From contig JAFTWQ010000036.1 in NCBI GenBank assembly GCA_017465225.1, forward strand, positions 1 through 41,648: a stretch of DNA of 41,648 bases, read 5' to 3'. A program made the position numbers and the translations under genes. The notes under the pieces were generated by a model. It did no database searches, had not been told where the DNA came from, and was given only the letters and a program-made list of their open reading frames with translations. Of this stretch, positions 14,585 through 30,441 are shown in pieces (position 1 is the stretch's first letter; each line of letters starts with the position of its first letter). Source of the stretch: Bacteroidales bacterium (GTDB lineage: Bacteria > Bacteroidota > Bacteroidia > Bacteroidales > UBA932).

Positions 14585-15502
14585 TCAGTCCTGATGGACA
14601 TGCACATCCATCTGAGGGAACGGGAACTTGATGCCGTTCTTCGGCAGTTCCTCATAAATCTTCTCGTTCATCTGGAAATTCACGTCCCAGTAGTCTGACG
14701 AGTGAACCCATCCTCTCATTACGAAGTTGATGCTGCTGTCAGAAAGGGCGCTGAGGGCTACAAACGGATCGGCAGGAGCTCCTTTGGCTATATTGAGTAT
14801 TCTTATGTCGCTTTTAAGAAGTCCCATGAGCACTGTCTTGGTCTCCTCGACCGATGCTCCATATTCAACCGAAACTGTCCAGTCAACGCGTCGCATCTGA
14901 TTCTGCGAGTAGTTGTTTACGGTGCCGTTAGACAAGGCTCCGTTAGGGATGATGATGCATCTGTTGTCAACTGTAGTAAGCTTGGTGCTGACGATGTTGA
15001 CTTCAGTGACTGTTCCTTCATAGCCCTGGGCCTGGATGTAGTCTCCAGCCTTGAATGGCTTGAATGCAATGATCATCATGCCGCCAGCAAAATTCTGGAC
15101 AGTACCGTTAAGGGCCATACCGATGGCCATGCCACCACCTGCAAGCAGTGCTGCAATTGAAGTCGTGTCAATGCCTACAGCTCCGATAGTTATGATTATA
15201 AGTATGACTGTAAGAGCGATGCTGATGATGCTCTGTACAAATGATGCGATGGCTGCATCTGTCTTCTTTCTTGCGAATACTCTGGCAACGATTCCCTTGA
15301 TTTTTCTGATTGCCCAGGCGCCGATAAGGTAGATGGCAAGGGCGGCCAGTACTTTCAGTCCGAAAGAAACGGCCTTGTCCAGAAGTTCAGACAAGAGATC
15401 GGTGACTGTAGTTGTGGAGAGCTTTTCTGCTACTGCAGCAAGCTCCTGCTGAACATCGAGTGAATCGATTGGTTGTGTCTGTAATAAGTTATTGAATCTC
15501 AT
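14585..15502 (-). CDS. mscS: Small-conductance mechanosensitive channel, MscS family
   Basis: A 305-residue inner-membrane channel that releases ions and solutes upon hypo-osmotic shock. About 40 N-terminal residues precede three transmembrane helices; the pore helix TM3 contains the Gly/Ala-rich GGGMAIGMALNGTVQNFAGG. The cytosolic beta domain has FKAGDYIQAQGYEGTVTEVN and IIIPNGALSNGTVNNYS. The size is close to E. coli MscS (286). It is the last gene of the minus-strand operon, 14 bases behind cysteate synthase, and ends just before the bidirectional terminator. Confidence 0.94.
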   Translation of the reverse strand: MRFNNLLQTQPIDSLDVQQELAAVAEKLSTTTVTDLLSELLDKAVSFGLKVLAALAIYLIGAWAIRKIKGIVARVFARKKTDAAIASFVQSIISIALTVILIIITIGAVGIDTTSIAALLAGGGMAIGMALNGTVQNFAGGMMIIAFKPFKAGDYIQAQGYEGTVTEVNIVSTKLTTVDNRCIIIPNGALSNGTVNNYSQNQMRRVDWTVSVEYGASVEETKTVLMGLLKSDIRILNIAKGAPADPFVALSALSDSSINFVMRGWVHSSDYWDVNFQMNEKIYEELPKNGIKFPFPQMDVHVHQD

Positions 15503-15516
15503 TCTTTTATAGGGTT

Positions 15517-16806
15517 TTAATTAAACAATTGCTCTACCATGTCTATTATTTCCTGTTCAGGAAGTTCCGGGTCGATCACAAGATGAGGCTTAGCGTAGAA
15601 TATCTCACCTTCCGATTTTGCACGTTCCTCTCCTGCTCCTGTGATATTGAGCATGATCACGTCATCTTTTCCGACCACACCTTCCTTTGCAGCCTGTGCC
15701 AATGATGCGACAGCAACGGCAGCGGCGTTATGGATATCGATTCCTTCGAGTTCGAGGAATTTTGCCTGCCATGCATGCAGCTCGTCGTTTGTTACCTTAA
15801 AGATATCTCCGCCTGCGTCCTCAAGTGCATCATAGAGACCTCCGGCGATCGGATAAGGTGGCTTTCTGTTCGAAAGAACCTTTGCGTCGATGATGGCTGC
15901 AGCCTTTCTTGCCTCGTCCGGAGTCATTGGAACGAGGGATCTCGAATGCTTCTTCCATGAATCGTACATGATCGTAAACGGATCATTCTGAGATGGATAC
16001 AGCTTCATCTTGTGGGTTCCATACCTGCCGTCTTCAATGAGCCTGAGGTTGTTCTCCCATGCCGCGATCGTACCGGTACCGCTTCCGATTGCCTGGAAAT
16101 ATGCATCCGGAATCTTTCCTATGACTTCGACTGCCGAGAGAAGGGTTGTGCCCATTCCGTCACGTCTGGCTACATTCTTGGCGCCGCCTTCCGCCATGAA
16201 CATGCTGCTTTTGCATGCGATGTCAGAAAGAGCGATTGCATCGAAATAGTCAGAGCCTTTAGGAGATGCGATGATCTTGACGCAGTCGTTTAATGGCTTC
16301 TTGAACCACAGTGCATTGATGTTGTCTTCCGGGATAGAAAGAAGCAGAGGAATATTGTTGTCGGAACATACTTTTGCAAAAGCACGAGCTGTGTTGCCTG
16401 CAGAGGCAACCACGAGAACCTTTTCATTGTCCTCAGGCAGTCTCGCACATACGGAATAGGCCTCTGTCTCCTTGAACGAGCATGTCTCCATTCGCGCGCC
16501 TTTCTCCGGGCAATAGCCTGATACTGTGATATATAGGTTGTTTAGTCCGAGTTCTGCAGCAAGCTTTTCCGACTTGTATGTGACAGGAGCGCATGATCCA
16601 GCAAGCGTCCTTCTTACAGGAAGCCAGTCGGCATATCTGTAGAATCCGTCAAGATCCGCTCGCGGGTTGTACTCCTTGGTTTCATAGACAGCCCTGACAA
16701 GGCTTGGAGTTGATGATTCCGGGTCGGCAAGTGTCCAGCCCATGTCCTCGAATGTCCTGCCGTCAGCGCAGTTCATTAATGTGTACTTGGTCGGTTTGAA
16801 TGTCAT
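15517..16806 (-). CDS. Cysteate synthase (threonine-synthase-like PLP enzyme)
   Basis: A 429-residue fold-type II PLP enzyme. The PLP lysine is expected at Lys112 (TCSFKETEA), Asn138 in VVASAGNTARAF contacts PLP, and the phosphate loop is GSGTGTIAAWE (241-251). Automated annotation may say threonine synthase. However, the blocks WLPV, VTYKSEKLAAELGL, SGYCPEKGA, GGAKNVARRDGMGT and RKPPYPIAGGLYDAL match what I know of the cysteate synthase family (phosphoserine plus sulfite gives L-cysteate and phosphate) of Methanosarcina and Bacteroidota. In Bacteroidota cysteate feeds the sulfonolipid capnine, and in methanogens coenzyme M. It lies 12 bases behind the HdrD-like gene. The substrate is inferred from family resemblance, not proven. 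Confidence 0.78.
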   Translation of the reverse strand: MTFKPTKYTLMNCADGRTFEDMGWTLADPESSTPSLVRAVYETKEYNPRADLDGFYRYADWLPVRRTLAGSCAPVTYKSEKLAAELGLNNLYITVSGYCPEKGARMETCSFKETEAYSVCARLPEDNEKVLVVASAGNTARAFAKVCSDNNIPLLLSIPEDNINALWFKKPLNDCVKIIASPKGSDYFDAIALSDIACKSSMFMAEGGAKNVARRDGMGTTLLSAVEVIGKIPDAYFQAIGSGTGTIAAWENNLRLIEDGRYGTHKMKLYPSQNDPFTIMYDSWKKHSRSLVPMTPDEARKAAAIIDAKVLSNRKPPYPIAGGLYDALEDAGGDIFKVTNDELHAWQAKFLELEGIDIHNAAAVAVASLAQAAKEGVVGKDDVIMLNITGAGEERAKSEGEIFYAKPHLVIDPELPEQEIIDMVEQLFN

Positions 16807-16818
16807 GGTTTATGTTTT

Positions 16819-18678
16819 TTAACGTTTTTTCTTTCTGGTAGCTTCGTCGACGATTTCCGCAATGTCCTTCACAGGGATATCCGAATATCTGTTGAATGTA
16901 CTTCTGCACAAAGGACATGCTGTTACGATCGTGTCCGGTGAAGCTATGGTAAGATTTGCCAATGCATTTTCTGTCAGTGCCTTGCGCTTGTCAAATCCGA
17001 GTGTGAGGCTGCCGAGGCTTCCTCCGCAGCATATGCTTTCCTTGCCATGCTTTTCCGCCTCTACAAGCTCTCCGGCCTTTCTTACCACGTTTCTAGGCTG
17101 TTCGTAGATGCCGCACCCTCTTCCCAGTTCGCACGGATCGTGATATACATATCGCGTATCGCTGCCGTTCAAAGTGATCTTTCCTGATTCGATAAGCCTG
17201 TCGAAGAACTCTGTATGGTGGATCACTTCTATTCCCTCAAGCTGGTACTGTTCCTTGAAGATCTTATAGCATATCGGGCAGCTGAGCAGGAGAGTGTCAG
17301 CTCCGGATGCCTTGATGATGGCGGTATTCTTTTCAATCATTTCCTTCGCCTGGGCGATTCTTCCGGCCATGAACATAGGTCTTCCGCAGCATATTCCTCC
17401 GTCCTTGTCCATTATTTCAAAGCGGATTCCCGCTTTCTGAAGGATTGCCGCCGTGGATTTGCTGATTGATGGGGTCAAGGAGGTCATACAGCCTGCAAAA
17501 TACATAACACGCTGATTCCTATCAGATGTAACAGTATTGTTTGAAGTGTTAACAAATTTGTTACAGCGTTCCAGGAGGGCATTTTCGTCAATATTTGCAT
17601 AACTCGGAGCCAGTTTATACTTCCTGACTGACCTTTGCGCAATCCTCATCATGTCGCCCTGGACACCTACCGGGCAGACTGCTGTACACTTGCCGCAAAG
17701 GAGACATTTGTCACTGATTTCCTCGATACGTCTTTCGTTGTAACGCTTGATCTGCCTGTTGAGATATACGGTGGTATCCTTGGTGTTAGCCTTGACCGTG
17801 CTCATCGGGCATGCATCGATACATACTCCGCAGCTAGGACATGAATATACCTGGAGCTTGGCGTATCCCTTGCGCGCGTGCGTTACCTTTATGCCGGCAT
17901 TCCTCATAGGAATGAGAAGTATTTCAGCCGGAATATGCATGTAGCGGCTGAAGGGGAGTATGCACATGAATACTCCGAGCGCTATCGAGTATGCCCACCA
18001 TGTAGGAAGCATGTTCATCTGGTCGCTGAGGAATGAATGAAGGACCATGTTCAGCGATTTCGTGAGGAAGGAACCTCCGCTGATGTCGGCCGTAAATCCT
18101 TCAGCCAGAAGTCTTAACGGAAAGATGCACCAGAGTGAGTATAGGCCGATCAGGTCGGTGATGCTCGGGTTTGTCGTCCTGCGCATGCCGAAGAAGCGCG
18201 AGCGGGCTCTCTTTATTATCGCCAGTATGATGCCGCTCAATATGACCAGCAGGAAGAAATCCATCAGGAAGAAGAAGAAGGATCCTTTCATTGTGCTGTC
18301 CGTCACGGCCACGAAATATCGGAAGAATATCGGATACCATATCTGGTGGACCCTCTGTGGAGTGTAGAGGAACACTTCAATATGGCCGATGACGATGAGC
18401 ATGAACCAGCCGAAAGCGATGCTGGAGTGCATGTATCCCAGAAGCATGTTCCTTTTCCACAGCTTTACATGGAAAAGGCAGTCGCAGAACCAGTCCCTGA
18501 CGTTCTTGGCCATTATCTTCGGGTTTATCAGGGAAAGGAAAAACTTCTTCCTGTCTTCTCCCGTCAGCTGGAGGATTATCCTTGCGGCTCCGATCACGCA
18601 CCATGAAAGCACGAAGATCATTCCGATCATGAAAGGGAGGACGAAATTGTTGTATCCGGAAAGGTAGATCTCTCTCAT
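16819..18678 (-). CDS. Membrane-bound HdrD-like fusion: NarI/HdrE-type anchor, two 4Fe-4S clusters, two CCG domains
   Basis: A 619-residue protein. Residues 1-250 hold about five transmembrane helices (14-37, 85-105, 136-157, 175-195, 222-245) with histidines (84, 99, 214, 248) suited to b-haem ligation, as in NarI, HdrE and DsrM. Next is a dicluster ferredoxin domain (Cys280/283/286/290 and 325/328/331/335). The rest holds two CCG domains: Cys397, 430-431, 467, 470, and Cys516, 550-551, 588, 591, all complete, which could carry HdrB-type noncubane clusters. It could pass electrons between menaquinone and a thiol/disulfide centre. The start overlaps the upstream hdrC-like gene by four bases. 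Confidence 0.85.
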   Translation of the reverse strand: MREIYLSGYNNFVLPFMIGMIFVLSWCVIGAARIILQLTGEDRKKFFLSLINPKIMAKNVRDWFCDCLFHVKLWKRNMLLGYMHSSIAFGWFMLIVIGHIEVFLYTPQRVHQIWYPIFFRYFVAVTDSTMKGSFFFFLMDFFLLVILSGIILAIIKRARSRFFGMRRTTNPSITDLIGLYSLWCIFPLRLLAEGFTADISGGSFLTKSLNMVLHSFLSDQMNMLPTWWAYSIALGVFMCILPFSRYMHIPAEILLIPMRNAGIKVTHARKGYAKLQVYSCPSCGVCIDACPMSTVKANTKDTTVYLNRQIKRYNERRIEEISDKCLLCGKCTAVCPVGVQGDMMRIAQRSVRKYKLAPSYANIDENALLERCNKFVNTSNNTVTSDRNQRVMYFAGCMTSLTPSISKSTAAILQKAGIRFEIMDKDGGICCGRPMFMAGRIAQAKEMIEKNTAIIKASGADTLLLSCPICYKIFKEQYQLEGIEVIHHTEFFDRLIESGKITLNGSDTRYVYHDPCELGRGCGIYEQPRNVVRKAGELVEAEKHGKESICCGGSLGSLTLGFDKRKALTENALANLTIASPDTIVTACPLCRSTFNRYSDIPVKDIAEIVDEATRKKKR

Positions 18679-19013
18679 TTCTTCTCCTCCTTATCATATA
18701 TACGGCAGATTGAAAGGATCAGATGCCTGGTGTTGATGCCTCTCGGACATACCATGGTGCATTTTCCGCATAACATGCAGTTGCTCATGAGCTTGAAAGC
18801 CTCTTCCTCCTTGCCTCTCTGCAGATACAAGAGCACTTTTCTCACGCTCATTCCTGAAAATCCGGCAGCAGGACAGGTCGCGCTGCATGAACCGCATGCC
18901 ATGCAGCGTACAGCGTCCGGCTCGATGCGGCAAAGCTCGCGGAAGCGCTCCTTGTCGACATTGTCCAGATTTATCGCTGAACTTGGTGATATCCTGAATC
19001 CGAAAATATTCAT
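18675..19013 (-). CDS. HdrC-like 4Fe-4S dicluster protein (second copy, C2)
   Basis: A 112-residue electron-transfer protein with two classic cubane motifs, CMACGSCSATCP (Cys37/40/43/47) and CMLCGKCTMVCP (Cys79/82/85/89), as in HdrC of heterodisulfide reductases. It has no membrane segment. The order of transcription is HdrA-like, this gene, HdrD-like fusion, with four-base overlaps on both sides, so the three proteins are probably made in equal amounts and form one complex. The likely role is a wire between the flavoprotein and the CCG domains of the fusion protein. Confidence 0.88.
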   Translation of the reverse strand: MNIFGFRISPSSAINLDNVDKERFRELCRIEPDAVRCMACGSCSATCPAAGFSGMSVRKVLLYLQRGKEEEAFKLMSNCMLCGKCTMVCPRGINTRHLILSICRIYDKEEKK

Positions 19014-20032
19014 CTTGCCTCTCCTGTTATGGTTGAATGTATCTCAAGAACGGCCGAACGTGCCTCTGCAAGCGTTTCGGGCACAGTCTTCGGGCCTGTA
19101 CATGCTCCGGCGTAGTATATTCCCTTTCTTGGAGACGATGTGATGTGGAACACATTGTCGCTGCTTTTGAGGAACCCGTCCGAATCGATTGGCAATGAGA
19201 GCATTGACGCAGATTTCGTGCTGTCCGGGTTGCAGACCATTCCGGACATGAGCACAAGGAGGTCAAGTGTTACCTTCAGCGGCTTTCCGGCCAATGTGTC
19301 CTCTGCTTTGACGATCACCTGCCCGTTTATGTTCTCGCTGACCTCGGAAACGCGTCCTCTTATGAAGTGGATGCCATGGTCACGCTGTGCCTTTGTGTAG
19401 AAGTCCTCGAACTTCTTGCCGAAAAGACGCAAATCCATATAGAAGCAGTATATCTCGGCTTCCGGATATTTCTCCTTCAGCTCGATGGCCTGCTTGATGG
19501 CTGTGATGCAGCATACTTTAGAGCATTGGGAGTTCCTTGCCTTCTCGTCTCTGGATCCCACGCAATGTACGAAGCCTATGGACTTTATGTCCTTGCCGCT
19601 GATCCTGTCGTCCTTATTCGTATTGAACCAATGCTCGAGGTCGGCATTGGTAATCACTTGATTATAAATTCCATATCCGTATTCTTCCTTTTTCTGGGCT
19701 TCAAAAAGCCGGAAGCCTGTAGTGTACAGGATATACTTGGATATTATCGAAATTCCGTTAGACAGCATGATGTTGTAGCTGTCCTTGAGACGGTTAATGA
19801 AAGATATCTCCGTATTGAGGAAAATGTTTGCGTCCTTGCTGGATGCAATGAGCTCCGATACGAGGTCCTGTGCAGGAGTCATATCGGGGAAAAGCCTGTT
19901 CCAGCGGGCCACATGGCCTCCAAGACGGTCGCTTTTCTCCACAATGATAGGAGAGTAGCCGAGCTTCAGGAGCTGCGATGCGGCTTCAAGACCGGCGATT
20001 CCTCCGCCGATTATTACTACTATTTCCTTCAT
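19010..20032 (-). CDS. Short HdrA-like FAD/4Fe-4S flavoprotein
   Basis: A 340-residue flavoprotein. It opens directly with the FAD dinucleotide fold (VVIIGGGIAGLEAA, then IIVEKSDRLGGH). The HdrA-specific cluster motif FVHCVGSRDE...CSKVCC lies at Cys157, 170, 174 and 175, and the C-terminal FAD motif is GIYYAGACTGPKTVPET. Methanogen HdrA has about 650 residues with an N-terminal region and C-terminal ferredoxin domains; both are missing here, so the protein resembles the short sHdrA type. A four-base overlap with the next hdrC-like gene and a six-base gap behind hdrB show operon structure. Without ferredoxin domains, classical flavin-based bifurcation with ferredoxin is less likely. Confidence 0.88.
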   Translation of the reverse strand: MKEIVVIIGGGIAGLEAASQLLKLGYSPIIVEKSDRLGGHVARWNRLFPDMTPAQDLVSELIASSKDANIFLNTEISFINRLKDSYNIMLSNGISIISKYILYTTGFRLFEAQKKEEYGYGIYNQVITNADLEHWFNTNKDDRISGKDIKSIGFVHCVGSRDEKARNSQCSKVCCITAIKQAIELKEKYPEAEIYCFYMDLRLFGKKFEDFYTKAQRDHGIHFIRGRVSEVSENINGQVIVKAEDTLAGKPLKVTLDLLVLMSGMVCNPDSTKSASMLSLPIDSDGFLKSSDNVFHITSSPRKGIYYAGACTGPKTVPETLAEARSAVLEIHSTITGEAR

Positions 20033-20038
20033 GTCTCT

Positions 20039-21109
20039 TTAAAAACATTTTAGATTGGTCGGAAGTTCCGGACGCATAAGGTCTTTCTTGTCCAGACCTT
20101 TGTATTTGTCTTCAGGATTGTACTCGATGCCTATCTTGTCCAGAAGCGGCTCTGCGCCGACCTGATGGAGCTGCAGACCGAGATCCCACGGGTCATATCC
20201 AAGGACAAGTCCTGCCACCTCTTCATATGTAAGTACCGGTATCCCGAATCCGTTCTGTCCATAGGTCTTTCCTTCGGTCTCGGCAATCACATACTGCCAT
20301 CTGTCGAGGAAGTAAGGACATCCCGGACAGTTGGTGATGATCATGTCCGGCTTGTACGGCTCCATGGACTCGAACTTCTTGTATGTGTTTGAAAGTGAAT
20401 AGCTTCTGTTTGCCTTTACATGGTACTGGCGGAATCCGTAGCCGCAGCAGTGGCGTCTCTCCGGGTAGTCGATGACATTTCCGCCCCATGATTCTATCAT
20501 TCCGGCAAGAACATATGGATATTCGGCTCCACCGACTCCTTTTGACGGGAACATCTTCGAATAATGACATCCGATATGCTCAACGACGCGGAGCGGTTCT
20601 CCTGTTTCCTTGTTGACAAGACGGAATTTTGCCTTTTCGGCAATCTCGTTGCGGAATTTGTATATGAGGTCGCTGGTATGGGCAAGATACTTCGGCTTCT
20701 TGAACTCCTTTCTGCATGATTTCCATAAAAGCTCGCGGATCTTTGTCTCGAGCTCCGGGAATTCATGCCATGTCTCAAGGATTTCAGTGTAGTTGCCGAA
20801 TGAAGTGATGCATGATGCCGCATAATTCTCATATCCGGCCTCCGTCATGAGCGCAAACTGACGCGCCACGATGGTCATCGCGGTCTCCTGTGGGATGGTG
20901 TCGCAGTGATATGCGATGCCTCCGCATGTCGTATGATGCTCATTTTCATGGACATCCTTGCCGAGAACATCACGACATATCTCCAGAAACATCTTTTCCG
21001 AAGCAGGGAAGAAGTTCTGCCTGATGCAGCTTCTCACATAATACCAGTGGTCATCAGGAATCTCTTTCTGATAATCGCTCCATATCTTCTGTTTGCCTTG
21101 ATAGATCAT
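20039..21109 (-). CDS. HdrB-like CCG-domain protein
   Basis: A 356-residue soluble protein. The second CCG domain is complete: GCHYS at Cys181, RHCCGYG at Cys221-222 and NCPGCPYFLD at Cys261/264, enough for one noncubane [4Fe-4S] cluster of the HdrB type, the site of disulfide chemistry. The first domain is degenerate: Cys28, TCGG with a single Cys62, and SCITS with Cys100 but no partner. So only one canonical active cluster is expected. It lies two bases behind the hdrC-like gene and six before the hdrA-like gene, which is the C-B-A order of sHdr and HdrABC-related operons. Substrate unknown. Confidence 0.86.
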   Translation of the reverse strand: MIYQGKQKIWSDYQKEIPDDHWYYVRSCIRQNFFPASEKMFLEICRDVLGKDVHENEHHTTCGGIAYHCDTIPQETAMTIVARQFALMTEAGYENYAASCITSFGNYTEILETWHEFPELETKIRELLWKSCRKEFKKPKYLAHTSDLIYKFRNEIAEKAKFRLVNKETGEPLRVVEHIGCHYSKMFPSKGVGGAEYPYVLAGMIESWGGNVIDYPERRHCCGYGFRQYHVKANRSYSLSNTYKKFESMEPYKPDMIITNCPGCPYFLDRWQYVIAETEGKTYGQNGFGIPVLTYEEVAGLVLGYDPWDLGLQLHQVGAEPLLDKIGIEYNPEDKYKGLDKKDLMRPELPTNLKCF

Positions 21110-21111
21110 GC

Positions 21112-21810
21112 CTAATCGTTGTTAAAATGCTTGTCCGAGCAATGCTCGAATGTGTGGCGGTAATACTCATCCATCGTCATTCCCATCTCCTCTGCCTTTG
21201 CCTTTGAATATTTTTCGATGGTTTCAATCCTTTCTGTGGCTCCGGTCACATCGAATATGTTCTGAAGCTCGTCCAGATCCTCCTGTGGGATGGCTCTCAA
21301 TGCACCGGGGCCTTTGCCCTTGTAATTTCCTCCCTGTCTGGCAAAGCTGTCTTCAAAATGTTCCGTATGCCATTTCCAGACCGGTCCTGCCTCGACGTGA
21401 TCTTCCCAGCTGAATGTGTCGGGATAGATGCAGTAGCCGTAATTGAGTATGTTGCCGGTCATTATCTTTGTAAGAGGGTAGAGCTGGCGTCCTTTTTCTG
21501 ATTCAGCGAAATAGCCGAGCTTTGCGGAAAGATTCCTCAAGGCCATGATCACCAGACCGGGACCATTCTTGCGGGGACATCTTGTCAGACACGACATGCA
21601 TTCTCCGCAGTACCAGATCACGTCGCTCTTGAGGAGCTTCTCGATCTCCTCGTCATCTCCACGCTGGACGGTATCGACTATCTTACGGGGATCATACCTG
21701 TAGAACTCCGCAGCCGGACATATAGCCGTGCATGTACCGCAGTTTATGCAGGTCTTGAGTCCTTCCTTTACGCGATAGTCCTCGCGGAGCATGTCGTAAA
21801 GCTTTCCCAT
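21112..21810 (-). CDS. HdrC-like 4Fe-4S dicluster protein (first copy, C1)
   Basis: A 232-residue protein with two cubane motifs near the N-terminus, CINCGTCTAICPA (Cys21/24/27/31) and CGECMSCLTRCPR (Cys68/71/74/78), followed by about 150 residues of aromatic-rich sequence without cysteines in CxxC arrangement. This long tail distinguishes it from the 112-residue copy in the same operon. It starts three bases after the cation exchanger stop, and hdrB follows after two bases. It should shuttle electrons between the HdrB-like and HdrA-like subunits. Confidence 0.88.
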   Translation of the reverse strand: MGKLYDMLREDYRVKEGLKTCINCGTCTAICPAAEFYRYDPRKIVDTVQRGDDEEIEKLLKSDVIWYCGECMSCLTRCPRKNGPGLVIMALRNLSAKLGYFAESEKGRQLYPLTKIMTGNILNYGYCIYPDTFSWEDHVEAGPVWKWHTEHFEDSFARQGGNYKGKGPGALRAIPQEDLDELQNIFDVTGATERIETIEKYSKAKAEEMGMTMDEYYRHTFEHCSDKHFNND

Positions 21811-21813
21811 AAA

Positions 21814-22767
21814 TTAAAGATTTGCAATGAGATACCACATGTATCCGGCTTCCATGAGCAGGAGTACGATACCTTCAAACCTGTCGAGCTGCTTTTTCTT
21901 GAACAGATATGCGCTGGCAAGTATGAAGATGGCGCCTGCAAGCACTACGCCCAGGTCTACATATGTCATGCCACCGAAAGAGAGCGGGTTTATAAGCGCC
22001 GAACCTCCGAGGATGAGGAGGATATTCGAGATGTTTGAACCGAGAACGTTTCCAAGGGCAAGCTGGCCTCGTCCCTTGAGTGCCGCTACTGCGCAGGTCG
22101 CAAGTTCCGGCATTGATGTTCCGGCAGCCATCACGGTGATAGCGATGAATTTGTCCGATACTCCGAACATCTTTGCGAGTTCTGTCGCAGAATTCACGAA
22201 AAGTTTTCCACCGGCGATGAGGGCTCCAAGTCCTGCAACGATGAGAAGTACCGAAATGCCGGTCTTGTATTCCTTGATGCCTTCTCCGTCTTCATCAGCA
22301 GTATCGGATTTGAAGGATGTGTAGAGATACCATGCGAAGATGGCGAGGAGGATGGCTCCGTCTATGCGTGAAAGCTGGTCCTGACCAAGTCCGAAGATGG
22401 TGAAATTCATTCCGAGGAGTATCAGAAGGACGGTAACAAAAATGTTTAACGGTATGTCTCTCTTGAGGTTACTCTTTGTGATGGTCAACGGAGCGATCAG
22501 GGCTGTAACACCGAGGATCATGAGGGTGTTGAATATGTTCGAGCCGACAATGTTGCCGATAGCCATGTCTGCTTTTCCCTGGAATGCCGACAGGAAGCTG
22601 ACAACCATTTCCGGAGTCGATGTGCCGATGCCGACAATTGTCAGACCGATCACGAATTCACTAATTCCGAATCTCTTCGCAATGCTGGATGAGCCGTCTA
22701 CGAGCCAGTTGGCTCCGAAAAGTATCAGAGCGAGGCCACCGAGCAGTATTAGAATCTGTAATGTCAT
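21814..22767 (-). CDS. Calcium/sodium antiporter, CaCA family (YrbG-like), copy 1
   Basis: A 317-residue membrane protein with ten to eleven helices in two inverted alpha repeats. Repeat 1 has IVGIGTSTPEMVVSF and GNIVGSNIFNTLMILG; repeat 2 has MAAGTSMPELATCA and GNVLGSNISNILLILG. The Glu residues in both STPE/SMPEL motifs bind the cation. Homologues exchange Ca2+ for Na+ or H+, but the ions here are inferred. It is the first gene of the operon that contains the Hdr-like genes, three bases before hdrC. A paralogue stands at 29470-30441. Confidence 0.93.
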   Translation of the reverse strand: MTLQILILLGGLALILFGANWLVDGSSSIAKRFGISEFVIGLTIVGIGTSTPEMVVSFLSAFQGKADMAIGNIVGSNIFNTLMILGVTALIAPLTITKSNLKRDIPLNIFVTVLLILLGMNFTIFGLGQDQLSRIDGAILLAIFAWYLYTSFKSDTADEDGEGIKEYKTGISVLLIVAGLGALIAGGKLFVNSATELAKMFGVSDKFIAITVMAAGTSMPELATCAVAALKGRGQLALGNVLGSNISNILLILGGSALINPLSFGGMTYVDLGVVLAGAIFILASAYLFKKKQLDRFEGIVLLLMEAGYMWYLIANL

Positions 22768-25762: not shown

Positions 25763-27502
25763 TTAAGAAATCTTGAGCTTTGTTTTGTAGAGTGTCTGTG
25801 AGATATTGATCATGAAGTCACCCATAGTCTCAAGCTCAGACACGATATCCATATAGTATACGCTTGTCTGGTAGTTCTTGCGGTCGCTCTCGATGCTTTC
25901 GATCTCCTCGTCGCGGAGGTTGTTACGCAGATTGTTGATCCTGTCTTCTGCAGAGTAGGCATTTGAGATTTCCTCAAGCTTTCCGTCGAATGCAAGTGAA
26001 AGATTCAGAATCATCACATCGTAGGCATTGTCGACAAGATCCACCATGGCATTGAGCTTCTTGATTGTATCCGCATCGAATGATTTGTTGTGGATATTTC
26101 TGCGTGAAAGGATACGGCTGATGCTTTCACCGGAGTCACCGAGTGATTCGAGCTCACCGATGATCTTGTACATGGCCTTGATCATATGAGATGTCCTTTC
26201 GCTGATCTCCTCTGCAGAAACGGCATTGAGGAATGTGGCGATCTCATATTCGATCCTGTCGGAAATCTCCTCATACTTGACGAGCTTGCCACGGAGTTCT
26301 TCAAATTTGTCCTGATCTGTCTCATTGATTGCAGCTCGCGCATATCCGAGTCCGTTCTTTGAGATCTGTGCAAAATGGATGATTTCGTTGAATGCCTGTT
26401 CTGTAGCGAGTTCCGGAGTAGCAAGCGGACCTGCCTCGATATATCTGAGACGGAACTTGTTATCCTCCTGATTAACAGGCTCCTTGATGACCTTGCATAC
26501 TACCTTTTCGATAAGACCTGTGAACCAGACGAGAATCAATGTGTTGATCAGGTTGAAGAGGGTATGGAGCATTGAAAGTCCATAAAGTGCTGAAGTGCTT
26601 TCAGGACCTGTCGGATCATTTACAGCAAAGCCGTCTGCTGCAGGGTTCGGAATGCCGAATACCGAACTTGTGATCCAACCGACAAGTGAAAGGAACGGCC
26701 TGAACAGAATCAGAGCCCAGATCACTCCGAATACGTTGAATATGGTATGTGAGAGTGCGGCGCGTTTTGCGGAAGAATTACCTACCGAAGCAGCGATGTT
26801 GGCTGTGATAGTTGTACCGATATTCTCTCCAAGAACCATTGCACAGGCCATCGGGAACGGTATCCATCCCATGCTGAGCATGATCAGGGTGATCGCCATT
26901 GTGGCAGATGATGACTGGAGTACGAGAGTAAGCACGGAACCGAAACCGAGGAAGATCAGGACTGACCAGAATCCGAATCCGGACCATGTCTTTACAAATT
27001 CCAATACTTCAGGTGTCTGCTTGAGATCTGGAACGGAGTCCTTCATGAATGAAAGACCGAGGAAAAGAAGCGAGAAGCCTACAACGAGTTCGCCGATGTT
27101 TCTTCTTTGGTTCTTTTTTGAAATCGACAGGATGAATCCAAGGAGCATCAAAGGAACGGCAAGGATAGAGATATCCGCCTTGAATCCGAGCCATGCCACC
27201 ATCCATGCGGTGACTGTAGTACCGATGTTGGCTCCCATGATGACGCCGATTGCCTGGACGAGTGTAAGGAGTCCCGCATTCACGAAGCTCACGACCATTA
27301 CGGTAGTGGCTGATGAAGATTGTATTACAGCTGTGATGCCAAGACCGGTAAGAACTCTCTTGAATGGATTCGAGGTCATTGAAGAGAGGAAACCTCTGAG
27401 TCTGTCACCTGCGGCTTTCTGAAGTCCGGAGCTCATGAGGTTCATTCCGTAAAGGAACATTCCGAGGGCTCCCAGCAGAGTGAAAATCTGTAAAATACCC
27501 AT
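25763..27502 (-). CDS. Na/Pi cotransporter family protein with PhoU-like domain, copy A
   Basis: A 579-residue protein. The N-terminal about 310 residues form two NaPi repeats with the QSSSAT motifs (VIQSSSATTVMVVSFVNAG and LQSSSATMAITLIML) and GANIGTT/GENIGTT loops, as in NptA/YjbB. The C-terminal about 200 residues are helical and PhoU-like (SLGDSGESISRILSRRN; AEDRINNLRNNLRD). Homologues move phosphate with Na+, often outward. The start is ATG 27502 behind a TACTTTTG box. It is strongly similar to the next gene upstream (about 18 differences in the first 160 residues by my count), showing a tandem duplication. Confidence 0.93.
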   Translation of the reverse strand: MGILQIFTLLGALGMFLYGMNLMSSGLQKAAGDRLRGFLSSMTSNPFKRVLTGLGITAVIQSSSATTVMVVSFVNAGLLTLVQAIGVIMGANIGTTVTAWMVAWLGFKADISILAVPLMLLGFILSISKKNQRRNIGELVVGFSLLFLGLSFMKDSVPDLKQTPEVLEFVKTWSGFGFWSVLIFLGFGSVLTLVLQSSSATMAITLIMLSMGWIPFPMACAMVLGENIGTTITANIAASVGNSSAKRAALSHTIFNVFGVIWALILFRPFLSLVGWITSSVFGIPNPAADGFAVNDPTGPESTSALYGLSMLHTLFNLINTLILVWFTGLIEKVVCKVIKEPVNQEDNKFRLRYIEAGPLATPELATEQAFNEIIHFAQISKNGLGYARAAINETDQDKFEELRGKLVKYEEISDRIEYEIATFLNAVSAEEISERTSHMIKAMYKIIGELESLGDSGESISRILSRRNIHNKSFDADTIKKLNAMVDLVDNAYDVMILNLSLAFDGKLEEISNAYSAEDRINNLRNNLRDEEIESIESDRKNYQTSVYYMDIVSELETMGDFMINISQTLYKTKLKIS

Positions 27503-27701: not shown

Positions 27702-29462
27702 TTATTTTTTGATGAAAGTCTTTTCAAGTGTCTGAGAGATGTTGATCATGAAGTCGCCCATCTTCTCCAGCTCGCTTACAATATCCATATAGTAGACGCT
27801 GGTCTGATAGTTCTTTCTGTTGCTCTCGATGCTCTCGATTTCAGTATCCCTGAGATTGTTCCTGAGGTTGTTGATGCGGTCCTCAGCATTGTATGCATTT
27901 GAAATTTCAACAAGAACCCCGCTATAAGCGGATGTGAGGTTGGCTATCATTGCGTCATATGCATTCTCTACGGCATCAGTCATATTGTTGAGATTCCTCA
28001 ATGTCTCCTCATCGAATGTCTTCTTATGGATATTCCTTCTTGAAAGAATACGGCTGATCGATTCTCCTGAATCTCCAAGCGATTCCATCTCGCCGATGAT
28101 CTTGTACATTGCCTTGAGCTTTGACGAAGTCTCCTCGCTGATGTCTCCGGTAGAGACTGCATTCAGGAATGACGCGATTTCATATTCGATGCGGTCTGAA
28201 ATCTCTTCGTATTTGACAAGCTTCTCACGGAATTCTTCAAATTTATCCTCGTCAGTCGCACGTATCGCAGAACGTACATAACCAAGTCCGTTCTTTGATA
28301 TCTGTGCGAAATGGATGATTTCGTTGAATGCCTGTTCGGTAGCAAGCTCCGGTGTGGCGATCGGACCAGCCTCTATGTACTTTAGTCTGAATGCGTTCTC
28401 CTCCTTGTTCTGCGAACCTTTTATGACCATGCAGACAAGCTTCTCGATGAATGGGATGAACCATATCAGGATACATGTGTTGATGGTGTTGAAGAGGGTA
28501 TGGAGCATTGACAGGCCATAGAGAGCCGAGGTCTGTGAATCGGTCTGGATCGGAGTCCCGTCAGCTGCCTTTTCGACAACAACCGCGAAGTCGGCACCTG
28601 CCGGATTCGGAACACCGAAGATGACCTCTGTGATCAGACCGATCAGCTTGAGGAAATATGGGAATGAAATCAATGCCCAAATGACACCGAATACGTTGAA
28701 GACGGTGTGGGCGAGTGCGGCTCGTTTTGCCGATGTGTTACCTACGGCTGCAGCTATGTTGGCTGTGATTGTGGTTCCGATATTCTCACCGAGCACCATC
28801 GCGCATGCCATATCGAACCTTATCCATCCCATGTTGAGCATGATGAGGGTGAGGGCCATGGTCGCAGATGAAGACTGGAGTACGAGAGTGAGTATCGTAC
28901 CGAACACCAGGAAGATAAGAACAGAACCGAAGCCATGTCCCTGCCATCCCTGAATGAATGAAAGCACTTCCGGATTGCTGCTGAGATCGGGAACAGAGTT
29001 CTTCATCAGAGAAAGACCGAGGAATAGAAGAGAGAATCCTATTATAAGTTCCGATATGTTTCTTCTCTGGTCTTTCTTCGAGATTGACAGGATGAATCCC
29101 AATGCCATCAACGGGACTGCGAGGATAGAGATGTCTGCCTTGAATCCGAGCCATGCCACAAGCCACGCTGTCACGGTTGTGCCGATATTCGCTCCCATGA
29201 TGACGCTGATTGCCTGGGCTAATGTAAGAAGACCCGCATTCACGAAACTTACTACCATTACGGTAGTGGCGGATGATGACTGGATCACCGAGGTGATACC
29301 CAATCCTGTGAGTACTCCTTTGAACGGATTGGAGGTCATGGCAGACAGGAAGTTACGGAGTCGGCTTCCTGCTGCCTTCTGAAGTCCGGAGCTCATCATG
29401 TTCATTCCGTAAAGGAACATACCGAGGGCTCCCAGCAAAGTGAAAATCTGTAACATTGTCAA
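27702..29462 (-). CDS. Na/Pi cotransporter family protein with PhoU-like domain, copy B
   Basis: A 586-residue paralogue of the adjacent copy A with the same layout: two QSSSAT repeats, GANIGTT and GENIGTT loops, and a helical PhoU-like C-terminal region. The main differences are in the loop after the eighth or so hydrophobic segment, where this copy carries a longer insert (VVEKAADGTPIQTDSQTS, about residues 295-312), and at the C-terminal tail (LEKTFIKK). It is preceded by a second CaCA exchanger gene with a gap of only seven bases, so it is in an operon with it, while copy A has its own promoter. Confidence 0.93.
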   Translation of the reverse strand: MTMLQIFTLLGALGMFLYGMNMMSSGLQKAAGSRLRNFLSAMTSNPFKGVLTGLGITSVIQSSSATTVMVVSFVNAGLLTLAQAISVIMGANIGTTVTAWLVAWLGFKADISILAVPLMALGFILSISKKDQRRNISELIIGFSLLFLGLSLMKNSVPDLSSNPEVLSFIQGWQGHGFGSVLIFLVFGTILTLVLQSSSATMALTLIMLNMGWIRFDMACAMVLGENIGTTITANIAAAVGNTSAKRAALAHTVFNVFGVIWALISFPYFLKLIGLITEVIFGVPNPAGADFAVVVEKAADGTPIQTDSQTSALYGLSMLHTLFNTINTCILIWFIPFIEKLVCMVIKGSQNKEENAFRLKYIEAGPIATPELATEQAFNEIIHFAQISKNGLGYVRSAIRATDEDKFEEFREKLVKYEEISDRIEYEIASFLNAVSTGDISEETSSKLKAMYKIIGEMESLGDSGESISRILSRRNIHKKTFDEETLRNLNNMTDAVENAYDAMIANLTSAYSGVLVEISNAYNAEDRINNLRNNLRDTEIESIESNRKNYQTSVYYMDIVSELEKMGDFMINISQTLEKTFIKK

Positions 29463-29469
29463 TAATTGG

Positions 29470-30441
29470 TTAAGCTATTTGTGTGCTGAGCAGATACCAG
29501 TTGTAGCCTGCAAAACAGAGGAACATTGCAGCTCCTGCCAGCCTGTTGATCTTTCCGATGAATCCCAGAAGAAGAGGAACGATTGCTGCGCCGATCATCA
29601 CGACATAGTCTACAGCTGTGATTCCAGCTGATGTGAGAGGCATTACCTGCGAACTCAAGCCGAGGATGAGAGTGATATTGAATATGTTAGATCCTACAAT
29701 ATTTCCCAGAGCCATCTGCGTGTTCTTCTTTACTGCTGCAACGACTGATGCTGCTAGTTCCGGCAGGGAAGTGCCGCATGCGATCAGGGTGAGCGAAATG
29801 AAGGCGTCGTTCACTCCGAATGACTTTGCGATGAGAACAGCATTGTCAACAAAGAAATCGCAGCTTGTGATGAGCACGGCAAGGCCTCCGGCTACCTTAA
29901 CTATGGCAAGCCAAAGGGGAGTCTTGTCCTCTTCTTCAGACTGTGCGGCTTCCTGCTGGACTCCGGAGCCAAGGGCTGCTGTCTTTCTGTCACGGTAGAA
30001 CGAATACCACATGAAGAGGATGAAGCAGGCAAGAAGTACAAGTCCGTCAATCCTGCTGATTGTAGCCGGTGTACCGTTGAAGAAATTCAAAGCGAGTACA
30101 GTGACCAGGAATGACACAAAGATGCAGAGAGGAATCTCGAACTTCATGTTCGCCTTGTCGATGGCGATAGGGAAGAACATGGCTGTAAGTCCCAGGATGC
30201 CAAGGACATTGAATATGTTCGAGCCTACTACATTTCCGATTGCGACGTCTGCATTGCCTCCTACTGCACCCAGAAAGCTTACTACAAATTCAGGCATTGA
30301 TGTGCCGACACCGACAATCGCAGCTCCGATGACAAAGTCTGAAACCTTGAATTTCTTTGCGATGGACACTGTGCCGGCAACGAGGAAATCAGCTCCGAAT
30401 ACGATGCCGGCGAGTGATACGATCAGAATTATATATTCCAT
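29470..30441 (-). CDS. Calcium/sodium antiporter, CaCA family, copy 2
   Basis: A 323-residue paralogue of the exchanger at 21814-22767. Repeat motifs are VGVGTSMPEFVVSF with GNVVGSNIFNVLGILG, and IACGTSLPELAASV with GNIVGSNIFNITLILG. The central cytosolic loop (about 155-172) is charged, with ...QQEAAQSEEEDKTP. It begins six bases after a small membrane-protein gene and ends seven bases before Na/Pi copy B, forming a three-gene operon. The pairing with a Na+-coupled phosphate transporter suggests a shared Na+/Ca2+/phosphate role, which is an inference from position only. Confidence 0.93.
   Translation of the reverse strand: MEYIILIVSLAGIVFGADFLVAGTVSIAKKFKVSDFVIGAAIVGVGTSMPEFVVSFLGAVGGNADVAIGNVVGSNIFNVLGILGLTAMFFPIAIDKANMKFEIPLCIFVSFLVTVLALNFFNGTPATISRIDGLVLLACFILFMWYSFYRDRKTAALGSGVQQEAAQSEEEDKTPLWLAIVKVAGGLAVLITSCDFFVDNAVLIAKSFGVNDAFISLTLIACGTSLPELAASVVAAVKKNTQMALGNIVGSNIFNITLILGLSSQVMPLTSAGITAVDYVVMIGAAIVPLLLGFIGKINRLAGAAMFLCFAGYNWYLLSTQIA

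What the first reader, a model, noticed from the sequence alone, without database searches (positions are those of the whole stretch)
16819..21810. sHdr-like operon (C1-B1-A-C2-B2 order) in a Bacteroidota, with the last CCG module fused to a membrane anchor
Seen: five genes with gaps of 2-6 bases or 4-base overlaps encode HdrC-, HdrB-, short HdrA-, HdrC- and HdrD-like proteins. Known: methanogen HdrABC uses a long HdrA; the sulfur-oxidising sHdr systems have the order C1-B1-A-(hyp)-C2-B2 and a short HdrA. Here B2 is replaced by a 619-residue fusion carrying five membrane helices with haem-ligand-like histidines. Inference: a quinone-linked thiol/persulfide redox complex in a non-methanogen. 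No lipoate-binding protein, TusA or DsrE gene is next to it, so the partner is unknown.
Basis: partly seen in the sequence, partly recalled or inferred. Interest (0 to 1): 0.75.

Follow-up and report, generated by a model that had tools for sequence, protein, structure and literature searches.

The report
Possible sulfite-making complex for sulfonolipids
A conserved set of five iron-sulfur and flavin proteins, one of them with a membrane anchor, found in many Bacteroidales bacteria has its genes in this lineage next to the enzyme that turns sulfite into cysteate, so it may make the sulfite for their unusual sulfonate lipids, an activity so far known from sulfur-oxidising microbes.

Summary
In detail: five genes (HdrC-HdrB-short HdrA-HdrC-[membrane anchor+HdrD]) form a tight operon with conserved cluster cysteines. 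It adjoins the operon in 61 of 71 close relatives. In five other families a second PLP enzyme and/or a SulA-type cysteate acyltransferase lies beside or near it. The complex occurs in 118 of 393 sampled genomes of the order. Of those without a recognised cysteate synthase, 39 of 40 sampled have SulA (controls 20 of 40). CysD/CysH-type genes are missing in 32 of 89 genomes with the complex and 5 of 60 without (sulfonolipid-type genomes). LbpA, the defining sHdr partner, was not found near it. Best reading: a menaquinone-linked, lipoate-free sHdr relative that oxidises sulfane sulfur to sulfite for sulfonolipid synthesis. Shown: genes, order, co-conservation, neighbours. Inferred: substrate, product, direction, quinone. 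Against: 54 of 118 genomes with the complex have no recognised cysteate synthase, and co-occurrence with TIGR03844 alone is not significant (p 0.11).

The parts
21112..21810 (-). C1, HdrC-like, two [4Fe-4S] sites
   Evidence: all 8 ligand Cys plus Cys127 conserved in 105 of 105 aligned, window included, after a length filter
20039..21109 (-). B1, HdrB-like: C-terminal CCG site with all 5 Cys (181, 221, 222, 261, 264); N-terminal site reduced to Cys28, Cys62, Cys100 with motif CxTSFxNY
19010..20032 (-). A, short HdrA flavoprotein; Cys157, 170, 174, 175 as likely [4Fe-4S] ligands
   Evidence: the four Cys in 22 of 22 aligned, Picosynechococcus included
18675..19013 (-). C2, small HdrC-like protein, two [4Fe-4S] sites
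   Evidence: 8 ligand Cys conserved in 88 of 88 aligned, window included, after a length filter
16819..18678 (-). ED, five-helix membrane anchor (invariant His70, His84, His248) fused to a HdrD-like part with two [4Fe-4S] sites and two complete CCG sites
15517..16806 (-). cysteate synthase (archaeal type, TIGR03844), 12 bases downstream of ED
   Evidence: 449.6 bits, cut-off 324.9; only match in the genome; adjacent in 61 of 71 relatives
14585..15502 (-). MscS-like channel gene (named by eye, no family scan), 14 bases further on, possibly the last gene of the unit
   Evidence: stem-loop with T-rich tail at 14565-14534 follows

Best explanation
The operon encodes a membrane-bound relative of the sulfur-oxidising heterodisulfide reductase (sHdr). 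C1-B1 bind a sulfane-sulfur substrate (persulfide or similar) at the CCG cluster of B1 and oxidise it to sulfite. Electrons pass through the FAD and clusters of A and C2 to the HdrD part of ED, and through its anchor (inferred haem b) to menaquinone, and in the end perhaps to fumarate. The sulfite is used by cysteate synthase from the same operon (O-phosphoserine + sulfite to cysteate), then by the SulA-type acyltransferase elsewhere in the genome to start sulfonolipid (capnine) synthesis. It supplies sulfite where sulfate assimilation does not. Shown by sequence: subunits, cluster ligands, operon, cysteate synthase, SulA-type gene in the genome, co-occurrence. Inferred: substrate, product, direction, quinone, complex formation.
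For: Cysteate synthase is the next gene and adjoins ED in 61 of 71 relatives. In four other families both a thrC-superfamily PLP enzyme and a SulA-type acyltransferase lie beside or within a few genes of the same operon in different arrangements; in a fifth the acyltransferase alone does. Of the 13 genomes with that PLP enzyme at high score, 11 have the complex (p 5e-5; cut made after seeing the scores; three of the 11, family f57, have only B1 and A recognised; without them 8 of 13, p 0.02). The window's genome has a SulA-type enzyme with the diagnostic Lys. Genomes with the complex but no recognised cysteate synthase: 39 of 40 sampled have SulA, against 20 of 40 controls (p 1e-6). CysD/CysH-type PF01507 hits are missing in 32 of 89 genomes with the complex and 5 of 60 without (p 9e-5; by family 16/44 versus 5/38, p 0.02; by family majority 14/44 versus 5/38, p 0.07; with f57 dropped 29/86 versus 5/60, p 3e-4, or counted as without the complex 29/86 versus 8/63, p 0.004). 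sHdr is reported to release sulfite (PMC12423496, passages). B1 shares its modified N-terminal motif with a cyanobacterial C1-B1-A-C2-B2 cluster next to an SQR-like gene.
Against: No biochemistry. 79 of 118 genomes with the complex lack TIGR03844, and co-occurrence with it is not significant (39/118 versus 69/275, p 0.11). 54 of 118 have no recognised cysteate synthase of any kind searched. 57 of 89 have CysD/CysH-type hits as well, so the complex is not only a stand-in. No sulfane-sulfur carrier is identified: no TusA match in the window's genome or in two complete congeners, no LbpA nearby. The genomes are related, so p values are too small; the family-level tests are weak (p 0.02 to 0.07).
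Confidence: 0.43

Rival explanations
1. A menaquinone-linked thiol/disulfide oxidoreductase: C1-B1 oxidises a dithiol or reduces a (hetero)disulfide, and ED exchanges electrons with the quinone pool. Sulfite is not formed; the neighbouring cysteate synthase is incidental or shares regulation.
For: HdrB/HdrD chemistry in methanogens is disulfide chemistry (established knowledge); B1 and ED match HdrB/HdrD-type models, below their cut-offs; many genomes with the complex have no recognised cysteate synthase.
Against: B1 has only one complete CCG site; repeated adjacency to cysteate synthase or SulA-type genes in different arrangements and 39/40 SulA co-occurrence.
Confidence: 0.26
2. A respiratory or detoxifying sulfur oxidation system (persulfide or sulfide to sulfite, exported), with cysteate synthase as a mere sink for excess sulfite.
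For: An Hdr system was noted in Black Sea strains, Bacteroidota among them, as possibly alleviating sulfide toxicity (PMC11129491, passages); an SQR-like gene adjoins the cyanobacterial relative.
Against: Same chemistry as the best reading but another purpose; the overlap with SulA and the enrichment where CysD/CysH-type genes are missing point to supply rather than disposal.
Confidence: 0.17
3. An EMO-like electron-transfer module (flavoprotein or ferredoxin to menaquinone) without any sulfur substrate.
For: ED has an anchor + HdrD layout, which I recall from ETF:menaquinone oxidoreductases; best PDB match 9ojn, 'Iron-sulfur-binding reductase', over the CCG part.
Against: B1 is the most conserved subunit (median 67% identity to the window against 41-54% for the others), as expected of a substrate-binding part. 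Genes for ETF were not searched for.
Confidence: 0.1
4. Coenzyme M route: cysteate synthase leads to coenzyme M and the complex reduces a CoM heterodisulfide.
For: Archaeal cysteate synthase serves coenzyme M synthesis in Methanosarcina (recalled; the TIGR03844 control rings only in Methanosarcina acetivorans among 14 named genomes).
Against: The genome has a SulA-type cysteate user, the same pairing as reported for Alistipes (PMC10191378, passage); comDE was not searched.
Confidence: 0.03

Closest known systems
sHdr (sulfur-oxidising heterodisulfide reductase-like) complex, hdrC1B1A-hyp-hdrC2B2 with LbpA
   Same: Order C1-B1-A-C2-X, short HdrA matching 6tjr nearly end to end, sulfur context
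   Different: No LbpA found near it; no 'hyp' gene between A and C2; B2 replaced by a membrane-anchored HdrD; found in Bacteroidales with sulfonolipid-type genes
Picosynechococcus sp. PCC 7003 plasmid cluster (NZ_CP016476.1, 185219-190959; L316)
   Same: C1-B1-A-C2 in the same order, B1 40%, A 43%, C1 48% identical, CxTSFxNY-type motif in B1, no 'hyp' gene
   Different: Separate 290-aa B2 instead of ED, followed by an SQR-like flavoprotein (below cut-off); no cysteate synthase among the annotated genes shown
EMO/EtfD-type iron-sulfur-binding reductases and HdrDE (layout recalled)
   Same: Membrane anchor plus HdrD with CCG sites
   Different: Here it is one gene of a five-gene Hdr operon
QmoABC (layout recalled)
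   Same: HdrA-type flavoproteins linked to quinone
   Different: Qmo fuses the anchor to HdrC, not HdrD; a Qmo-like set with a QmoC-like protein (150.6 bits, cut-off 300) lies separately beside the operon in L171
Sulfonolipid pathway of Alistipes (cysteate synthase, SulA, ketocapnine reductase)
   Same: Archaeal-type cysteate synthase plus SulA-type acyltransferase in one genome
   Different: No paper in the library searched holds both 'heterodisulfide reductase' and 'sulfonolipid'

Membership tests
sHdr (sulfur-oxidising Hdr-like) system | Gene order C1-B1-A-(hyp)-C2-B2 | tested here: inconclusive
   C1-B1-A-C2 order met, but no hyp gene and B2 replaced by ED; a few genomes have other orders, such as C1-C2-ED-B1-A
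sHdr (sulfur-oxidising Hdr-like) system | Short HdrA | tested here: met
   340 aa; one alignment over residues 5-330 with 6tjr, 196 bits; long HdrA chains align in two stretches
sHdr (sulfur-oxidising Hdr-like) system | Lipoate-binding protein LbpA with the cluster or in the genome | tested here: not met
   No match in 220 loci and the window with one A. ferrooxidans LbpA-like query at E 1e-3; 2 of 46 genomes with the complex (G732, G408, 99-100% complete) have no GcvH-type match at E 1e-6. The other 44 have at least one, so a role for GcvH there is not excluded
sHdr (sulfur-oxidising Hdr-like) system | TusA/DsrE sulfur carriers | tested here: inconclusive
   TusA in 20 of 46 genomes with the complex and 8 of 20 without, p 1; DsrE not searched
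sHdr (sulfur-oxidising Hdr-like) system | Sulfite as product | not testable with these tools
   Needs enzyme or mutant assay
HdrABC of methanogens | Long HdrA, and HdrB with two complete CCG sites | tested here: not met
   A is 340 aa (long chains 643-671 aa); B1 N-terminal site has 3 of 5 Cys
QmoABC | QmoC = HdrC fused to membrane anchor | tested here: not met
   The anchor is fused to the HdrD-like part; C1 (232 aa) and C2 (112 aa) show only Fer4 matches
Archaeal-type cysteate synthase (gene 6) | TIGR03844 above curated cut-off | tested here: met
   449.6 bits, cut-off 324.9
SulA-type cysteate acyltransferase (elsewhere in the genome) | Lys at the SulA Lys281 position | tested here: met
   AKSLPM motif in the window's genome; diagnostic value from PMC9304779, passages; the position was matched by motif, not by aligning SulA itself

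The most novel reading that the evidence does not exclude
A lipoate-independent, menaquinone-reducing sHdr-type complex acts as a dedicated biosynthetic sulfite synthase in anaerobic Bacteroidales: the chemistry of lithotrophic sulfur oxidation re-used to build bioactive sulfonolipids in bacteria that cannot reduce sulfate.
Probability: 0.38. Interest if true: 0.85.

Novelty: new variant of a known kind. Interest (0 to 1): 0.7.

Why it matters
Cysteate synthase needs sulfite. The word sulfite does not occur in the main text of the three sulfonolipid papers I searched (PMC9304779, PMC11211663, PMC10191378), so where anaerobes without sulfate assimilation get it seems open in what I saw. The operon gives a concrete candidate that one gene deletion can test. 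If true, it extends sHdr-type chemistry from sulfur oxidisers to fermenting Bacteroidales, shows that it can run without the lipoate carrier found essential in Hyphomicrobium, and connects it to lipids that have been linked to inflammation (PMC11211663, first part).

Tried and rejected
Link to TIGR03844 alone across the order: not significant. The lower-scoring class of the second PLP enzyme (58 genomes, 218-580 bits, fragments included) shows no link (14 of 58 with the complex, OR 0.7). LbpA and TusA as partners: no support. A second set of loci (18 of 140) has C1-B1 alone; in the 14 of them annotated many lie beside NifX-, MinD-, Mrp/NUBPL-, OsmC-, Cys/Met-lyase-, cysteine-desulfurase- or CoA-disulfide-reductase/rhodanese-type genes. 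16 of the 18 form one weakly supported group in the B1 tree (0.60). This hints at a sulfur role for C1-B1 but was not followed further. Phylum sample: no ortholog besides the window's own among 394 genomes, only six of which (own included) are shown as being of that order; other hits scored at most 101 bits. Trees with named sHdr, HdrABC, Qmo and DsrMK references were not made: few named whole proteins were at hand, so placement rests on pairwise scores and motifs. A fold search of the ED model was never accepted, and no distances between histidines or cysteines were measured in the model.

'With the complex' means a fetched region with B1 plus A and/or ED; three genomes of family f57 (G394, G504, G596) have only B1 and A recognised, and one search gives the tests without them. 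The set of 108 cysteate-synthase genomes used includes one fragment below the cut-off (G494). The 40 genomes with cysteate synthase but without the complex were 40 of 69, picked by hand from the list, not at random; the 40 and 40 were drawn at random from 53 and 148. One of the 89 (G605) has neither SulA nor a recognised cysteate synthase. SulA was looked for in only some of the TIGR03844 and high-scoring PLP-enzyme genomes. PF01507 holds both CysD and CysH, so a hit does not prove sulfite formation. G404, G531, G717 and G777 have a B1 match but were not typed.
Full report
What is there. The five ORFs are real and tightly packed. C1 and C2 each carry two [4Fe-4S] motifs, conserved in 105 of 105 and 88 of 88 aligned sequences. 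A is a short HdrA with four conserved cysteines (22 of 22) and aligns nearly end to end with the 349-aa chain 6tjr, which I recall as the HdrA-like protein of Hyphomicrobium denitrificans. B1 keeps all five cysteines of the C-terminal CCG site but only three of five at the N-terminal one, where it has CxTSFxNY. The same kind of motif occurs in B1 of Picosynechococcus PCC 7003 and in an Acidithiobacillus ferrooxidans plasmid protein whose gene lies near a GcvH-like gene. ED joins five membrane helices to a HdrD-like part with both CCG sites complete; the model has a mean pLDDT of 84.5. Three histidines of the anchor part are invariant in 30 diverse sequences.

The sixth gene. Twelve bases after ED comes cysteate synthase (449.6 bits against a cut-off of 324.9), the only match in the genome. 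It adjoins ED, within 400 bases and on the same strand, in 61 of 71 close relatives with at least 1.5 kb of flank. An MscS-like gene and a stem-loop with a T-rich tail follow.

Distribution. In a sample of 393 genomes of the order, 127 have a B1 match, a few of them fragments. I fetched 140 regions around B1 hits: 118 have B1 with A and/or ED (110 with C1, A, C2 and ED all found), 18 have C1-B1 alone or B1 alone, 4 are cut by contig ends. Three of the 118 (family f57) have only B1 and A recognised; four others of the eight incomplete ones lie near contig ends or in a short contig. In 394 genomes of the phylum no ortholog was seen besides the window's own, though only six of those genomes are shown as being of that order.

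Link to sulfonolipids. (a) In other families a different thrC-superfamily PLP enzyme and/or an alpha-oxoamine synthase lie beside the operon: L192 and L305 (both enzymes), L309 (synthase only), L152/L294, where a protein that looks by eye like a short-chain dehydrogenase and another gene lie between the PLP enzyme and C1, and G431, where both enzymes lie directly upstream by position. Eight of the 13 genomes with the high-scoring PLP enzyme have it within about 8 kb of B1 or of a B1 fragment, in four families. Cysteate synthase, acyltransferase and ketocapnine reductase are the known first sulfonolipid enzymes (PMC11211663, first of five parts read). (b) These acyltransferases, and the one in the window's genome, carry the Lys that marks SulA against serine palmitoyltransferase (PMC9304779, passages; sequences; I located the position from the mutagenic primer printed there). 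(c) Of 40 genomes drawn from those with the complex but no recognised cysteate synthase, 39 have a SulA-type enzyme at 690 bits or more, against 20 of 40 genomes without B1 or cysteate synthase. The Lys was present in 20 of 20 and 19 of 20 of those read; the one without is a 496-bit match.

Sulfite supply. If the complex supplies sulfite, genomes with sulfonolipid-type genes but no sulfate assimilation should have it. I counted a genome as lacking when no PF01507 (CysD/CysH-type) hit reaches 90 bits. With the complex, 16 of 39 TIGR03844 genomes, 10 of 10 genomes with the high-scoring PLP enzyme (three of them f57) and 6 of 40 without recognised cysteate synthase lack it. Without the complex, 4 of 40 TIGR03844 genomes and 1 of 20 SulA-type genomes lack it. 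In total 32 of 89 against 5 of 60 (p 9e-5); by family 16 of 44 against 5 of 38 (p 0.02), or by family majority 14 of 44 against 5 of 38 (p 0.07). With f57 dropped it is 29 of 86 against 5 of 60 (p 3e-4; by family p 0.04); with f57 counted as lacking the complex, 29 of 86 against 8 of 63 (p 0.004; by family p 0.07). Put the other way, 32 of the 37 that lack it have the complex; the exceptions are G396, G448, G579, G674 and G768. In the window's family none of the five genomes tested has a strong hit; the window's own genome is only 78% complete and has two weak hits of 63 bits.

Mechanism. sHdr is reported to release sulfite in H. denitrificans (PMC12423496, passages), and LbpA is encoded in sHdr genomes with very few exceptions (PMC10332631, passages). 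Here LbpA was not found: no match in 220 loci and the window with one query, and two nearly complete genomes with the complex have no GcvH-type match at all. TusA shows no link (20 of 46 against 8 of 20). So this does not pass as sHdr; it is a relative that probably works like it, with electrons going to menaquinone through ED. Which carrier brings the sulfane sulfur is unknown. The C1-B1-only loci, many beside cysteine desulfurase, Cys/Met lyase, CoA-disulfide-reductase-rhodanese, OsmC or Mrp-type genes, suggest persulfide handling by C1-B1.

What speaks against it. Co-occurrence with TIGR03844 alone is weak (39/118 against 69/275, p 0.11). 54 of 118 genomes with the complex have no recognised cysteate synthase, and 57 of 89 also have CysD/CysH-type hits. 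SulA-type genes are common without the complex (20 of 40 controls). The genomes are related, so the tests overstate significance. No biochemical fact about this complex was found here.

Literature. A search for papers with 'heterodisulfide reductase' and 'sulfonolipid' found none; with 'cysteate' it found 8, by their listing mainly on methanogens and related archaea or on sulfur cycling; 'sHdr' with 'Bacteroidetes' and 'heterodisulfide reductase' found none. One paper notes an Hdr system in Black Sea strains, Bacteroidota among them, as possibly alleviating sulfide toxicity (PMC11129491, passages). Most subscription papers were not searchable, so novelty is judged on the open library only.

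Noticed in passing
L146, L148, L150, L151, L154, L155, L156, L157, L173, L179, L184, L186, L216, L221; also L273, L283, L298, L314 (neighbours not annotated): C1-B1 (in L298 only B1, at a contig start) without A, C2 or ED; in many of the first 14 beside NifX/MinD/Mrp-NUBPL/OsmC/Cys-Met lyase/CoA-disulfide-reductase-rhodanese/cysteine-desulfurase-type genes: a possible soluble persulfide-handling version. 16 of the 18 group together in the B1 tree with weak support.
   Followed up: partly
L316:9242-14982 (Picosynechococcus sp. PCC 7003 plasmid): Cyanobacterial C1-B1-A-C2-B2 cluster followed by an SQR-like flavoprotein.
   Followed up: partly
L171:812-6634 and L155:667-6495: HdrA/GltD-like 914-916 aa, HdrA-like 657-662 aa and QmoC-like 355-359 aa proteins in a row beside the operon (L171) or beside C1-B1 (L155): a Qmo-like set with an extra GltD-like part.
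   Followed up: no
L158, L159, L180, L195, L218; by size and position also L296, L301, L304: Short sensor histidine kinase (one scanned) plus a LuxR-type response regulator (by eye) directly upstream of C1 in several families.
   Followed up: no
window 25763-27502 and 27702-29462: Two adjacent, very similar ORFs that look by eye like Na/phosphate cotransporters with a PhoU-like end; cation-exchanger-like ORFs lie at 21814-22767 and 29470-30441.
   Followed up: no
G480, G574, G609, G666, G667, G484, G485: Pairs of larger proteins (about 240-256 and 430-580 aa) that contain GcvH-like domains, present with or without the Hdr complex.
   Followed up: no
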